Assembly: GCA_022651005.1 (NCBI GenBank)
Contig: JALCQD010000001.1
Coordinates: 434,001 to 498,000 of the forward strand
DNA length: 64,000 nt
Source of the DNA: Bifidobacteriaceae bacterium
Lineage (GTDB): Bacteria; Actinomycetota; Actinomycetes; Actinomycetales; Bifidobacteriaceae
Direction of reading: 5' to 3'
Shown piece after piece: positions 2,163 to 23,303 of this stretch. A program made the position numbers and the translations under genes. The notes beneath the pieces were generated by a model. It searched no databases, was not told where the DNA came from, and worked only from the letters and a program-made list of their open reading frames with translations. The number at the start of each line of letters is the position of its first letter. The first letter of the stretch is position 1.

Positions 2163-3688
2163 AGGGATTGCACGAGGAGTGCGGCATCTTCGGCGTCTGG
2201 GGGCATCCCGACGCCGCGAGGCTCACCTACTTTGGGCTTCATGCCCTCCAGCATCGAGGTCAGGAGGGCGCCGGCATCGTCGTCAACAACGACGGGGTGC
2301 TCGACGGCTACCGCGGACTGGGCCTTCTCACCCAGGTGTTCAAGCGCGAGGAGACGCTCACCAATCTCGTGGGCAACAAGGCCATCGGTCACGTGCGCTA
2401 CGCCACCTCCGGGAACAGCTCCATCGACAACATCCAACCCTTCCTTTTCAACTTCCATGACGGCCAGTGCGCGCTTGCCCACAACGGCAACCTCACCAAC
2501 TGCCCGAGCATCAAGGAACGACTCGAAAATCAGGGCGCAATCTTCCACTCCAATTCCGACACCGAGGTGCTCATGCACCTCATTCGTCGTTCTGCCGCGA
2601 GTACCTTCGTCGACCGTCTCAAGGACGCCCTTAATCAGGTGCACGGCGGCTTTGCGTACCTGCTCATGACGTCCAATGCCATGATCGGCGCCCTCGATCC
2701 CAACGGCTTCCGGCCGCTGTCCATCGGTCGCATGACCAACGGCGCCTACGTCCTGGCCTCCGAGACCTGCGCGCTGGAAACGGTGGGCGCTGAATTCGTA
2801 CGCGACATCAAGCCGGGCGAAATCGTCATCGTGAACGACGACGGCTATCACATCGAAAGCTATACGAACACCGTGCAGCAGGCCATCTGCTCCATGGAAT
2901 TCATCTACTTCGCCCGTCCCGATTCCAACATCTACGGCGTCAACGTGCACTCTGCCAGGAAGCGCATGGGTAAGAGGCTCGCCGCGGAGTCCCCCGCACC
3001 CCATGCAGACATGGTCATCGGCGTGCCGAATTCCTCCCTCTCTGCCGCCTCCGGCTACGCAGAGGCCAGCGGGCTGCCCAACGAGATGGGCCTCATCAAG
3101 AACCAGTATGTGGCCCGTACATTCATTCAGCCCACTCAGGAGCTGCGCGAACAGGGTGTGCGCATGAAGCTGTCCGCCGTGCGCGGTGTGGTGGCCGGCA
3201 AGAGCGTGGTGATTGTTGACGACTCCATCGTGCGTGGCACTACGTCGCGGCGCATTGTGCGGCTGCTGCGTGAGGCAGGGGCCGCAGAAGTTCACGTGCG
3301 CATCGCCTCGCCGCCGCTGCGCTTCCCCTGCTATTACGGCATCGACATCCAGCGCACCTCGGAACTCATCGCGGCGCACAAAACCGTGGACGAAATCTGC
3401 GACTACCTCGGCGCTGACTCCCTTTCCTTCCTTTCCGTGGATGGTCTTGTGGAATCCGTGGGACTGCACGCAGATGCGCCCTACGGGGGTCTGTGCGTCG
3501 CCTACTTCAACGGCGACTACCCCACGAGCCTGGGCGACTACGAACAGGAATTCCTGGCGTCGCTTTCCCCCGAGGAGCGCGCACGCGTAGCGTCCTTCGC
3601 ACACGATGCCAGCGGGTACAACGGCAACGAATTCACGTATTATCAATCTTCCCCATCTCACTCCGAATCCTCTCACTCCGAAAGGTGA
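2147..3688 (+). CDS. purF: amidophosphoribosyltransferase PurF
   Basis: Glutamine PRPP amidotransferase, first committed step of purine synthesis (PRPP to phosphoribosylamine). I chose ATG 2147 because AAGGAG at 2133-2138 sits 8 bases upstream; a GTG at 2129 would overlap that site. The resulting 513-aa protein has an 11-residue propeptide ahead of Cys12 (CGIFGVWG), the nucleophile exposed after processing in this family. The N-terminal Ntn glutaminase is followed by a phosphoribosyltransferase domain with the PRPP loop [14 protein letters not shown] starting at residue 354. The start lies inside the 3' end of purL and purM follows after 4 bases, so purL-F-M is one tightly packed operon. Confidence 0.97.
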
Positions 3689-3692
3689 TCCC

Positions 3693-4742
3693 ATGCCCTC
3701 CGCATACGATTCAGCAGGCGTCAACATCGAGGCCGGTTACGAGGTGGTCAAGCGCATCGGCTCCCACGTGGCGCGAACGGCACGTCCCGGCGTGATGGGC
3801 GGCATTGGCGGCTTCGGCGGCCTGTTTGACCTCGCGTCGCTGGGATACAAGGAGCCCGTGCTGATTTCGGGAACCGACGGAGTGGGCACCAAGCTCCTCG
3901 TGGCAAAGGCGGCCGGAAAGCACGATACCATCGGCATCGACTGCGTGGCCATGTGCGTCAACGACATCGTGGCCCAGGGCGCGGAACCGCTGTTCTTCCT
4001 TGACTACATCGCGTGCGGAAAGAACGACCCGGCGCTGTTGGAGCAGGTCGTCGCGGGCGTCGCGGACGGCTGCGTGCAGGCGGGGGCGGGGTTGATTGGC
4101 GGCGAAACCGCCGAGATGCCCGGAATGTATGACACCGACGAATACGACCTCGCTGGATTCACGGTGGGAGTCGTGGAGAAAAGCCGGATTATCGACGGCT
4201 CTTCCATTGGCGCCGGAGACGTTCTTATAGGACTTGCCTCTACGGGCGTGCATTCCAACGGATTCTCGCTGGTGAGAAAGGCTCTGTTTGAGGACGGCGG
4301 GCTCACGGTGGAGTCCACGCCTTCCGAACTCGGCGGGAAGAGCGTGGGTGATGTGCTGCTCACTCCCACCGCCATCTACGTCTCCGCGCTCAAGCCGTTG
4401 ATTGCCGAGGGACTGATTCACGGCGTCTCACACATCACCGGCGGCGGATTCATTGAGAATATTCCGCGCATGATGCCCGAGGGGCTGACGGCGTCGGTGC
4501 GTCTCGGTTCGTGGGACGAGTCGGCGATCTTTGGACTCATCGAGCGGTGCGGATCCATCCCGCGTGCCGAAATGTACAACGTGTTTAACATGGGGCTCGG
4601 CATGGTACTGTCGGTTGCCTCCTCGCAGGCCGACCGTGCGCTGAAGCTTCTGTCCGACGCCGGTCAGAAAGCGTGGGCGGTGGGCACTGTGGTTGACAGC
4701 GATGCGGCCAAAGACACCGCGAAGGGCGTGCGGCTGGCGTAA
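3693..4742 (+). CDS. purM: AIR synthetase PurM
   Basis: Phosphoribosylformylglycinamidine cyclo-ligase, ATP-dependent closure of FGAM to aminoimidazole ribotide. The 349-aa length matches the family. The ATP/substrate motif GTDGVGTKL begins at residue 60, and the glycine-rich [11 protein letters not shown] and [13 protein letters not shown] motifs are present. ATG 3693 is preceded by an AAAGGTG ribosome-binding site and lies 4 bases after purF; an upstream ATG in the same frame lies within purF and would add an unrelated sequence. Part of the pur operon. Confidence 0.97.
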
Positions 4743-20287: not shown

Positions 20288-20447
20288 AGCGGATTCCTTT
20301 CGGGGATGATTCTTCGCAAACCTTGCGTACTCGTAGCGTACCGCGGTGTGGACGCGAGGCACACTGTCAGCTTTGACGCATAAGATGGAAGCACGTGATT
20401 CTTTAGAAAGTGAGGCTCGCGGCCTCGCACAAACGGAAGGTGGACAC

Positions 20448-20726
20448 ATGGCAAACGCAATTGTTCTGATTGACGTGGCATCCGATCGCATCAATGAGGC
20501 GGCACAGGAAATCGTCAACATTGAGGGCGTCTCCGCCGTGTATTCCGTAGCAGGGGACGTCGATCTCGTAGCCGTGGTCTCCACCAAGAGCTCCGATGAT
20601 CTCGCCACCATCATTCCCGGAAAGATTGCCAAGGTCGATGGCATCATGAGCACGCATACGCTCATGGCATTCCGCGAATATTCCGCAAAGCAGCTCGACG
20701 AGGCGTTCAACATCGGTCTGGATTAA
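20448..20726 (+). CDS. stand-alone Lrp/AsnC ligand-binding (RAM) domain protein
   Basis: A 92-aa protein made of a single RAM domain ([43 protein letters not shown]) without the DNA-binding half of Lrp. Such stand-alone domains form dimers and octamers that bind amino acids. ATG 20448 has AAGGTGG upstream; the conserved fold begins exactly there. It reads away from luxS across a 160-base gap and is followed by a strong terminator, so it is monocistronic. The physiological ligand is unknown. Confidence 0.9.
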
Positions 20727-20752
20727 TCCCGTCGATATTCCCGTCTAGCGGT

Positions 20753-20766
20753 GCTAGCGCGCTAGC
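20753..20766. repeat. 14-bp perfect palindrome
   Basis: GCTAGCGCGCTAGC lies between the RAM gene stop and its terminator. It may be an extra 3' stem or a protein site; nothing more can be said. Confidence 0.7.
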
Positions 20767-20768
20767 GT

Positions 20769-20807
20769 AAAAGACCTCCTCCTTCGTAATGAAGCGGGAG
20801 GTCTTTT
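20769..20807 (+). terminator. rho-independent terminator
   Basis: AAAAGACCTCC (20769-20779) pairs exactly with GGAGGTCTTTT (20797-20807) across a 17-base loop and ends in a T-run. It terminates the RAM-domain gene; the A-rich left arm makes it potentially bidirectional. Confidence 0.88.
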
Positions 20808-20830
20808 CATAGACCTAGGTACGTCTCCCC

Positions 20831-20991
20831 AGTTGTGCGATTGGAACCAGGGTTGTGCGATTGGGGTTGGAGTCGTGCGACGACCGGCCGAGTTGTGCGA
20901 TTGAGAAATCGTGCCATAGGCGAGTCACAACTCTCAAAGCCGTCGCACAACTCCAACCCCAATCGCACAACTCAGGAAGCGTCGCACAACT
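20831..20991. repeat. nested inverted-repeat array of eight ~10-bp sites with 20-bp phasing
   Basis: Four direct copies of a decamer close to AGTTGTGCGA start at 20831, 20851, 20871 and 20891, exactly 20 bp apart. Four inverted copies (core CGCACAACT) start at 20924 (variant GTCACAACT), 20944, 20964 and 20983. The middle part is a 31-bp inverted repeat (20852-20882 with 20941-20971) carrying a single mismatch. The array lies between the terminator of the RAM gene and the dnaG stop, at a convergent junction. The 20-bp spacing equals about two helical turns, so all sites of one half face the same side of the duplex. I do not recognise it as a named repeat family. Confidence 0.9.
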
Positions 20992-21059
20992 TCTGAGATA
21001 TCGGCGTTTCAGGGACAGAAGCGGGGAGAGAAATAGAGATAAATACAGATAAACGCGCG

Positions 21060-23303
21060 TCAGCCCCTGTGCGACGCCTCGAAGATTTGGGCGCGGATGC
21101 TCTTGCGCTCTGCCTCGAGCTTGGTAATGGTCTCCAGCAGCTTGATCTTCACGTTCGGGTCACCCGCTGAATTCATTTGGTGATGAATCGCGCTGATGCG
21201 TCGCATCAAAGATCCGTCGCGCAACTTCGCCATCAACTCCGCCACATATTGCACCGCAGCATCGGATACAACGACCGAGCGAACACTCTCTCCCTGACCG
21301 GAACCAGCACCGAAACCGGAACCAGTACCAGCACCAGCACCAGATCCATTACCTGATTGACTCTGGAAACCGGACCGTGCACCATTCTGAACTGCGCCCT
21401 GCCCGTTGGAACCATATTGTCCGTTCTGGCTGCCGCCGAATCGAGGAGCGTTGCCGCCGGGACCACTGCCAGATCCAACGCCTGGACCACCGGCCGCGCC
21501 CCCATTGTCCTCTCCCGGCAAGGGAAGGGGCAGAACGGCGAGCTCGTCGATCACCGGTTCAAGCAGTGGCCCCGCCGCCTTACTGAGCGTATGCAACCAC
21601 TCTCCTGCGGGAACTGATTTCTCCGGCAGCCCTCCCGCCACAGTGATGGCCTGATACAGCGATTTGAACACGGGAATCGCGAAGCTCATCTCGTCGAGGC
21701 TGGCGAACATGTCACGGTTGATGGCGCCGGGAATCTGAATGATGGCGCCCATGAGCTGCTGTTCCGTGATGAACACGGAATCGTCGACGTGATAGTACCC
21801 CTGCTGGGCCGCGCCGCGCCGCTGTGCAACGAGTCTCTCCCGGGAACGCGCACCAGGCGTCGAGGCCTCGTTGCGTTCGAGCTGATACGCAAAATTCTGA
21901 TTGTTGCGGCGTCGCGGGGCATACGCATCCTCGTCTCGAACACCGAGCCGTCGGCGAGCCGATGCCACCTCCGAGTTCATCTGCTGCAGACTGATGCCGA
22001 TGGTGCGCGCCGCCTTCTGCGCGTACATGCCCACCAGGGAACGGTCTCGAATCTGGGCAATCACCGGTGCCACAGCCTTCATGGCACCCACCTGACCCGT
22101 GGTGTACTGGGTGTCGAAGGCGGCGATGGCCGTGTCGATCACAAAGTCATACAAAGGCTTTGCACCCTCGATGAGCTTCTGTACCGCCACATCCCCGTGC
22201 TTGATGCGCAAATCGCAGGGATCGAGTCCATCCTGTGCTACCGCCACGAAGGTCTGGGTAAGGAACGTTCCGTCGAGACCAAAAGCGTGGATGGCGGCCT
22301 TCTGCCCTGCCGCGTCGCCATCGAAGGTGAACACCACTCGGGAACCTTTCACCGGTCCAATCAGCTGAACGGCGCCGAGTGAATCGTCGGAAATGAGACG
22401 GCGCACGATCTTGGCATGCTCGAGCCCGAAGGCCGTTCCACAAGTCGCCACTGCAGTATCTATACCGGCAAGATGGCACGCCATGACGTCGGTATATCCC
22501 TCCACAATCACCACTTGGCGCTTGGATACGATGGCTTTCTTCGCCAAATCGATGCCATACAGCACTTGGTTCTTGTGGTACAGGGTGGTATCGGGGGTGT
22601 TGATGTACTTGGCGGCGATCGCATCGTCGTCATACAGCTTGCGCGCGCCGAATCCGATGGTGCGACCAGTGGAGTCACGAATGGGCCACGTGGCGCGACC
22701 TCTGAAGTAGTCATAGGCGCCGCGCTGCCCCATGCGGGCGAGACCGGCGTCCGTCATCTCCTTCTGAGTGAAGCCGAGAGACGCCAGGTGGCGCACCAGG
22801 TTATCCCATCCCTGAGGGGCATAGCCGCAGCCGAAACGGGCAGATTGAGCTTTGGTGAAGGTGCGCCCTCCCAGCAGTTTGCGGGCGGGCAACGCCTCCT
22901 TGGTCATCAGCTGCTCGACGAAGAACTTCTGAGCCTCCTCGTTGGCCTGCAGCAAACGCGAGCGCGTGGAGCCGCTGCGCTGCTGTGAATCCGGGGTGTT
23001 CTCGTAGTGCAGTTCGATGCCGTACTTATCGGCCAAGATCTCGACAGCCTCGGCGAATCCCACGGACTCCGATTGTTCGACGTAGCCGAAGATATCGCCA
23101 CCCAAGCCGCAGCCGAAGCAATGCCACGCACCGAGCGAGGGGCGGACGGAGAAGCTTGGGGTCTTCTCGTCGTGGAAGGGGCACAACCCCATGAAAGTAC
23201 CGGATCCCGCCGGCTTCAGCGTCACCGAATCCGACACGATATCGTAAAGGTCAGCAGAGGCACGGACCTTCTCGACGTCCTCTTTTTTTATTCTTCCGAC
23301 CAT
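21060..23303 (-). CDS. dnaG: DNA primase DnaG
   Basis: Synthesises RNA primers at the replication fork. The 747-aa protein has a CHC2 zinc ribbon (Cys41, His44, Cys62, Cys65), a TOPRIM core (EGYTDVMAC at about residue 268, and FDGDAAGQKA at about 325) and a C-terminal helicase-interaction domain. It is longer than the roughly 600-640 aa typical of the family because of a Gly/Ser/Asn/Gln-rich low-complexity insert at about residues 598-673, inside the C-terminal region. The ATG at 23303 lacks a strong ribosome-binding site. The DHA2 exporter and dgt genes lie upstream on the same strand; dgt next to dnaG is a common actinobacterial arrangement. Confidence 0.96.
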   Translation of the reverse strand: MVGRIKKEDVEKVRASADLYDIVSDSVTLKPAGSGTFMGLCPFHDEKTPSFSVRPSLGAWHCFGCGLGGDIFGYVEQSESVGFAEAVEILADKYGIELHYENTPDSQQRSGSTRSRLLQANEEAQKFFVEQLMTKEALPARKLLGGRTFTKAQSARFGCGYAPQGWDNLVRHLASLGFTQKEMTDAGLARMGQRGAYDYFRGRATWPIRDSTGRTIGFGARKLYDDDAIAAKYINTPDTTLYHKNQVLYGIDLAKKAIVSKRQVVIVEGYTDVMACHLAGIDTAVATCGTAFGLEHAKIVRRLISDDSLGAVQLIGPVKGSRVVFTFDGDAAGQKAAIHAFGLDGTFLTQTFVAVAQDGLDPCDLRIKHGDVAVQKLIEGAKPLYDFVIDTAIAAFDTQYTTGQVGAMKAVAPVIAQIRDRSLVGMYAQKAARTIGISLQQMNSEVASARRRLGVRDEDAYAPRRRNNQNFAYQLERNEASTPGARSRERLVAQRRGAAQQGYYHVDDSVFITEQQLMGAIIQIPGAINRDMFASLDEMSFAIPVFKSLYQAITVAGGLPEKSVPAGEWLHTLSKAAGPLLEPVIDELAVLPLPLPGEDNGGAAGGPGVGSGSGPGGNAPRFGGSQNGQYGSNGQGAVQNGARSGFQSQSGNGSGAGAGTGSGFGAGSGQGESVRSVVVSDAAVQYVAELMAKLRDGSLMRRISAIHHQMNSAGDPNVKIKLLETITKLEAERKSIRAQIFEASHRG

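What the first reader, a model, noticed from the sequence alone, without database searches (positions are those of the whole stretch)
20831..20991. Eight-site, 20-bp-phased inverted array at a convergent gene junction
Four decamers near AGTTGTGCGA start at 20831, 20851, 20871 and 20891; four inverted copies start at 20924, 20944, 20964 and 20983. Spacing is 20 bp (one 19), about two helical turns, so the sites of each half line up on one face of the DNA. The centre forms a 31-bp inverted repeat with one mismatch whose intervening decamer spacers are also mirrored. This is too ordered for a simple terminator and unlike CRISPR. It could be an array for an oligomeric DNA-binding protein (nucleoid or chromosome-domain marker), a BIME/REP-like 3' element, or a mobile palindromic unit.
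Basis: seen in the sequence. Interest (0 to 1): 0.85.

Follow-up and report, generated by a model that had tools for sequence, protein, structure and literature searches.

The report
Repeat arrays paired with a nuclease
The ordered block of repeats at this gene junction is one of about a dozen copies in the genome, two of which bracket a gene for a DNA-cutting-type protein, and other actinobacteria have the same protein family bracketed by their own private repeats, which suggests an undescribed partnership between selfish-looking repeats and a nuclease.

Summary
In detail: 20-bp-phased decamers on the left, inverted copies on the right, and a 31-nt stem with one mismatch. It is not a single copy. 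The genome holds 12 such elements (E1-E12), all downstream of gene ends, none between divergent genes. A sister species has at least five with the same architecture but another motif; two lie at the same junctions (dnaG-lrp, nusB-carA) in the same orientation. The repeats have therefore changed in concert within each genome. Two elements, E1 and E2, bracket a lone gene for an AbiEi-like/DUF559 (Vsr-type, PD-(D/E)XK) nuclease. In 9 of 11 such genes from several actinobacteria, both flanks carry the same gene-specific palindrome or ~20-bp-phased array, against 1 of 143 control genes, itself flanked by elements. Four plasmid-borne repeat types tested recur 10-20 times, each confined to one strain; solo copies sit mostly at convergent 3' ends. 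No Y1/RAYT transposase was found in the genus, so these are not REPINs. Best reading: the window element is a solo copy of a nuclease-associated repeat family, working like REP/RAYT but with a homing-like nuclease partner. The association is shown; binding, cutting and conversion are inferred. No published description was found.

The parts
20831..20991 (.). whole element E5 (solo copy)
   Evidence: R1 model E 4e-27
20831..20840 (+). left unit 1, AGTTGTGCGA
20851..20860 (+). left unit 2, GGTTGTGCGA
20871..20880 (+). left unit 3, AGTCGTGCGA
20891..20900 (+). left unit 4 (innermost), AGTTGTGCGA, followed by the centre motif GATTGAGAAATC
20901..20922 (.). asymmetric centre, 22 nt between the innermost 9-mers; innermost start-to-start spacing of 31 bp is kept wherever both innermost units are recognisable
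20923..20932 (-). right unit 1 (degenerate)
20943..20952 (-). right unit 2
20963..20972 (-). right unit 3
20982..20991 (-). right unit 4 (19-bp step)
20769..20807 (.). separate terminator-like hairpin AAAAGACCTCC..GGAGGTCTTTT between the lrp-like gene and the element
   Evidence: I4
20448..20726 (+). lrp/AsnC-type small protein, left neighbour
   Evidence: gene name from sequence recognition
21060..23303 (-). dnaG (primase), right neighbour
   Evidence: gene name from sequence recognition

Best explanation
The element is a solo, non-coding copy of a dispersed repeat family tied to one nuclease gene. In this genome two copies, E1 and E2 (contig C1, about 188.5 and 189.7 kb), bracket a 294-codon gene (C1:188800-189684) for a protein with an AbiEi-like N-terminal part and a Vsr/DUF559-type PD-(D/E)XK nuclease part. 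Shown: the architecture, the copy number, the 3'-end location, concerted change between species, and the recurrent bracketing of this protein family by private repeats in other actinobacteria. Inferred: the protein binds the 20-bp-phased units, nicks or cuts at or near element copies, and repair from another copy (within or between elements) converts and multiplies units. That would homogenise the motif in each genome and let elements persist in the harmless gaps after gene ends. It works like REP/RAYT or a homing endonuclease, with a different enzyme.
For: Family: 12 elements in the own genome; units in one 20-bp phase with a constant centre. Location: always after a gene end, convergent or tandem, never divergent. 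Sister species G001: five elements with motif GAATCGTGCCCTCATT, two at the same junctions (dnaG-lrp, nusB-carA) with the same centre orientation; the two junctions examined in G002 are empty. Arms of one element match each other better than arms of different elements (permutation p 1e-4), at shifts of 0, 20 or 40, as expected from copying of units. Nuclease: E1-gene-E2. Related genes were found by protein similarity without regard to flanks; with L058, 8 of 10 share a repeat on both flanks at score 16 or more, against 1 of 143 controls, Fisher p 6e-11. A gene tested after the idea was formed gave the highest score, 63, with a 13-unit array at mostly 19-22 bp. G001's nuclease at the same gmk-ilvD site is flanked by other units at 20-bp spacing plus an inverted copy. 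Repeats are dispersed and private: 20, 10, 12 and 11 places; 8 of 11 Tsukamurella solo copies convergent, 0 divergent. Nuclease-like residues invariant; profile hits 3hrl and weakly a mobile-intron nuclease, AbiEi models for 7 of 9, DUF559/MTES_1575.
Against: No binding, cleavage or movement was shown. In G001 the nuclease that was found has a different repeat (GGTTGCGATGAATT) from the dispersed ATCGTG elements; a cognate for the latter was not seen (assembly 76% complete). Nonomuraea L211 shows no shared repeat and L064 only a short one. Pfam scores lie mostly at or below the curated cut-offs, and the window genome's own protein matched no AbiEi model. The sample is 11 genes from a few genomes; four come from one Tsukamurella strain. 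No target-site duplication was seen by eye for the window copy.
Confidence: 0.62

Rival explanations
1. The repeats are 3'-end RNA elements: long hairpins that act as bidirectional terminators or mRNA stabilisers between convergent genes.
For: All lie after gene ends; almost all fold better than shuffles, z about -1 to -13.
Against: The lrp-like gene has its own terminator-like hairpin before the element, although none was seen on the dnaG side. The best pairing register differs between elements by 20 or 40 nt, so no single fold is kept. No stem followed by a T run is found in the stretch. The same repeats lie upstream of the nuclease genes and can be mostly direct arrays. No Rfam family reaches threshold.
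Confidence: 0.13
2. The arrays are binding sites of an oligomerising chromosomal protein (nucleoid or domain marker) unrelated to the nuclease.
For: Regular 20-bp phase and constant centre; motif conserved while spacers vary.
Against: Only 12 copies. The motif changes between sister species at the same sites. A third member of the genus shows none in its assembly. It does not explain the nuclease bracketing seen across actinobacteria.
Confidence: 0.1
3. The repeats are operators: the AbiEi-like N-terminal part binds them to control its own gene, and dispersed copies are decoys or regulated sites.
For: AbiEi models match most of the proteins; repeats lie upstream of the nuclease genes.
Against: Copies also lie downstream of the nuclease genes, and solo copies sit at 3' ends of unrelated genes, a poor place for operators.
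Confidence: 0.1
4. They are REPIN or MITE copies mobilised by a conventional transposase.
For: Dispersed inverted units, in multiple copies at 3' ends.
Against: No Y1 transposase in any of the three genus genomes while the control search rings in E. coli. Element edges decay gradually with no clear duplication. Orthologous sites are old, yet the motif differs.
Confidence: 0.05

Closest known systems
REP/REPIN with RAYT (REPtrons)
   Same: Dispersed inverted repeats, intergenic, genome-specific families, each tied to a single-copy enzyme gene flanked by the same repeats (PMC3116915, PMC3733652).
   Different: The enzyme is a Vsr/DUF559-type nuclease, not a Y1 tyrosine transposase; units are about 20-bp phased arrays or palindromes without a recognised GTAG/CGTC tag.
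EDxHD/Vsr-type homing endonucleases (e.g. the mobile-intron protein of PDB 3r3p)
   Same: Distantly similar nuclease part; a nuclease gene linked to its own recognised DNA is the homing logic (homing logic from general knowledge).
   Different: No intron or intein; many dispersed non-coding copies instead of one target gene.
AbiE/type IV toxin-antitoxin antitoxin AbiEi
   Same: Most of the proteins match AbiEi models.
   Different: No toxin partner recognised next to the gene; fused nuclease part; repeats on both sides and dispersed.
Foldback elements with sub-repeated arms (Drosophila FB; from memory)
   Same: Inverted arms built of short tandem sub-repeats.
   Different: Bacterial, about 120-210 bp, linked to a nuclease; resemblance only.
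GGGACAG(N)15TGTCCC motif pair of Bifidobacterium animalis (PMC5217627)
   Same: Intergenic inverted pair in a bifidobacterium, 21 copies, mostly nearer 3' ends.
   Different: Not examined here; may be another class.

Membership tests
REP/REPIN-RAYT | Y1 (HUH) tyrosine transposase of the RAYT type in the genome | tested here: not met
   PF01797: 0 of 3 genus genomes; control rings in E. coli (assemblies 76-96% complete)
REP/REPIN-RAYT | dispersed, extragenic, inverted-pair repeats in many copies | tested here: met
   12 elements, all intergenic
REP/REPIN-RAYT | enzyme gene flanked by the same repeats | tested here: met
   E1-nuclease-E2, but the enzyme belongs to another superfamily
CRISPR | identical direct repeats with unique spacers next to cas genes | tested here: not met
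   inverted halves, spacers shared within and between elements, dnaG/lrp neighbours
Intrinsic terminator | G+C-rich stem directly followed by a T run | tested here: not met
   no terminator-like site found in 20401-21400 by the scan
MITE | sharp ends with target-site duplication | tested here: inconclusive
   no duplication seen by eye at E5 and outer units decay; no formal test; empty junctions in G002 are not cleanly alignable
DUF559/Vsr-type PD-(D/E)XK nucleases | conserved D..EYDG..H catalytic-type residues | tested here: met
   invariant E187, D218, Y230, G232, H235, Q241, D245 across 9 proteins; Pfam scores near or below cut-off; profile hit 3hrl
Catalogued RNA family (Rfam) | match above gathering score | tested here: not met
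   only microRNA-precursor and one sRNA model far below threshold

The most novel reading that the evidence does not exclude
A class of selfish system widespread in actinobacteria: AbiEi-DUF559 nucleases that each recognise a private palindrome or ~20-bp-phased array bracketing their own gene, and that spread and homogenise dispersed copies at gene ends by cut-and-repair conversion, so that nuclease and repeat change specificity together.
Probability: 0.45. Interest if true: 0.92.

Novelty: new variant of a known kind. Interest (0 to 1): 0.8.

Why it matters
DUF559-type proteins are found in actinobacteria without a known role, and many short palindromic repeats have no known mover. A rule that each such nuclease sits between two copies of its own private, dispersed repeat gives both a testable partner. 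It would be a second, independently evolved solution to the REP/RAYT arrangement, a natural set of matched nuclease-target pairs, and a way to explain concerted evolution of short repeats in bacteria.

Tried and rejected
CRISPR, terminator, Rfam RNA, Y1-driven REPIN: tested and not met. Phage or plasmid origin of the element: no real match. The exact pair pattern in named GTDB genomes gave only scattered, unrelated matches. Models R1/R2 found no convincing elements outside G000 and G001 (the weak single hits look unrelated). A strict in-register hairpin as the conserved thing was rejected: registers shift by 20 or 40. Viral loci of the nuclease could not be gathered. Structure prediction was not tried because the nuclease loci are not of the kinds that tool admits.

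Full report
OBSERVATION. The junction between an lrp/AsnC-like gene (ends 20726, +) and dnaG (ends 21060, -) holds four left units at 20831, 20851, 20871, 20891 and inverted units at 20923 (degenerate), 20943, 20963, 20982. The stem is 31 nt with one mismatch.

IT IS A FAMILY. The pattern GTTGTGCGA-N11-GTTGTGCGA with up to three mismatches hits 47 times in the 2.16-Mb genome, against 1 for the reversed pattern. A sequence model of ten elements recovers 12 clusters with E below 1e-12: contig C1 188.5, 189.7, 195.8, 240.5 and 454.8 kb (the window's own), C2 166.3, 571.5, 635.5, C3 130.8, C4 78.5, 91.3, 113.1. Plus-strand units share one phase modulo 20, minus-strand units another, and the innermost start-to-start spacing is 31 bp wherever both innermost units are recognisable. 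Of about 95 units scored, 56 successive spacings are exactly 20; most other values are stray matches of the loose scan. The centre is asymmetric (GATTGGGAAATCA or GGAAAATGGC), so elements have an orientation.

PLACE. Every element lies in an intergenic space after at least one gene end: convergent pairs (for example lrp/dnaG, a DUF349-type gene/ribH, GtrA-type/MFS) or tandem pairs (nusB/carA, gdhA/helicase, typA), never between divergent starts (gene names from sequence recognition and a simple hexamer gene caller, not curated annotation).

SISTER SPECIES. Genome G001 of the same genus has at least five elements with the same inverted, phased layout and the same centre, but the unit GAATCGTGCCCTCATTCYC and mostly 19-bp steps. 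Two of them lie at the same junctions as two of this genome's elements, dnaG-lrp and nusB-carA, with the centre pointing the same way. G002, the third genome of the genus, has short junctions without elements at both places, and neither model finds elements there. So sites look inherited while the motif was rewritten genome-wide: concerted evolution.

UNITS MOVE WITHIN ELEMENTS. Spacers of the left arm match the right arm of the same element better than right arms of other elements (permutation p 1e-4), with the best register shifted by 0, 20 or 40 nt. A fixed RNA hairpin would not shift; copying of whole units would. Folding energies are low (z about -1 to -13), as inverted arrays must give.

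THE NUCLEASE. E1 and E2 bracket one gene, C1:188800-189684. Its protein has a weak Pfam match to the Vsr-type REase family MTES_1575. Relatives found by tblastn in this genome, in G001 and on actinobacterial plasmid records were then examined. Several are annotated DUF559, the group also matches AbiEi models (7 of 9, not this genome's own), and an alignment profile matches PDB 3hrl (E 1e-4) and, weakly, a mobile-intron nuclease. Thirteen columns are invariant, including the D..(E)Y(D)G..H type of active site.

FLANK TEST. For each gene I took 350 bases on each side and scored the best shared ungapped repeat, direct or inverted. Scores were 28, 11, 27, 44, 30, 42, 16, 25, 11 and 22 for ten nuclease genes; 143 other genes had mean 9.5, maximum 16 (Fisher p 6e-11 at a cut of 16). 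The one control that reached 16, an ABC permease in G001, is itself flanked by G001-type elements. Apart from the first gene these were chosen by protein similarity alone. An eleventh gene, fetched after the idea was formed, scored 63; it has 13 GGGGGA units downstream at mostly 19-22-bp steps and five upstream. Of the two low scorers, one (L064, this genome's paralog) still has TCGCACTCGATG-type palindromes on both sides and one (Nonomuraea, L211) has none. G001's nuclease at the gmk-ilvD site, the same site as E1-gene-E2, is only about 35% identical to this genome's and is flanked by GGTTGCGATGAATT units at 20-bp steps plus an inverted copy on each side.

DISPERSAL. Four cognate repeats tested on the plasmid collection recur at 20 places in 8 records, 10 places in 1, 12 places in 9 and 11 places in 2; each set is confined to records of one organism, as far as the records show one strain each. 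Eleven Tsukamurella solo copies looked at in context: 8 convergent, 3 tandem, 0 divergent, often filling the whole gap between two stop codons. This is the same placement as the window's element.

MECHANISM. Shown: association, private motif per nuclease, dispersal, 3'-end placement, concerted change, conserved nuclease residues. Inferred: the nuclease binds its unit, breaks DNA at copies, and repair copies units between and within elements. Insertion survives where it does little harm, after gene ends. The weak point is G001, whose dispersed elements do not match the repeat of the one nuclease seen there.

KNOWN WORK. REPINs with RAYTs are the nearest analogue (PMC3116915, PMC3733652), but no Y1 transposase was found in the genus. 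Literature searches for DUF559, MTES_1575 or AbiEi with palindromes or dispersed repeats found no description of this association; the library holds only open-licence papers, so absence there is not proof of novelty.

Noticed in passing
L064:8615-9484 (own genome C4:186114-186983): A second DUF559-like gene, about 35% identical to the E1/E2 one, with its own different palindrome (TCGCACTCGATG..) on both sides.
   Followed up: partly
L224:3277-3640 (Tsukamurella): Tandem array of 13 GGGGGA units at mostly 19-22-bp steps right after a DUF559-like gene annotated hypothetical.
   Followed up: partly
L157, around 3200-4700 (G001): An ABC permease gene in G001 is flanked on both sides by G001-type elements, so G001 has at least one more copy than listed.
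   Followed up: no
L071:4532-7494 (own genome C4, next to E12): Two adjacent similar genes for secreted HNH-type (DUF1524-like, by eye) proteins beside element E12.
   Followed up: no
L209, about 3012-3544 (G002): Weak tblastn traces of the nuclease near gmk in G002, possibly a decayed copy.
   Followed up: no
L022/L023 (Elusimicrobiota MAG contig ends): Multiple GTTGTGCGA pairs at 30-bp steps at contig ends, looks like a tandem array, probably unrelated.
   Followed up: no
Bifidobacterium animalis, PMC5217627: Published unexplained intergenic inverted motif GGGACAG(N)15TGTCCC with 3' bias; might belong to the same class.
   Followed up: no
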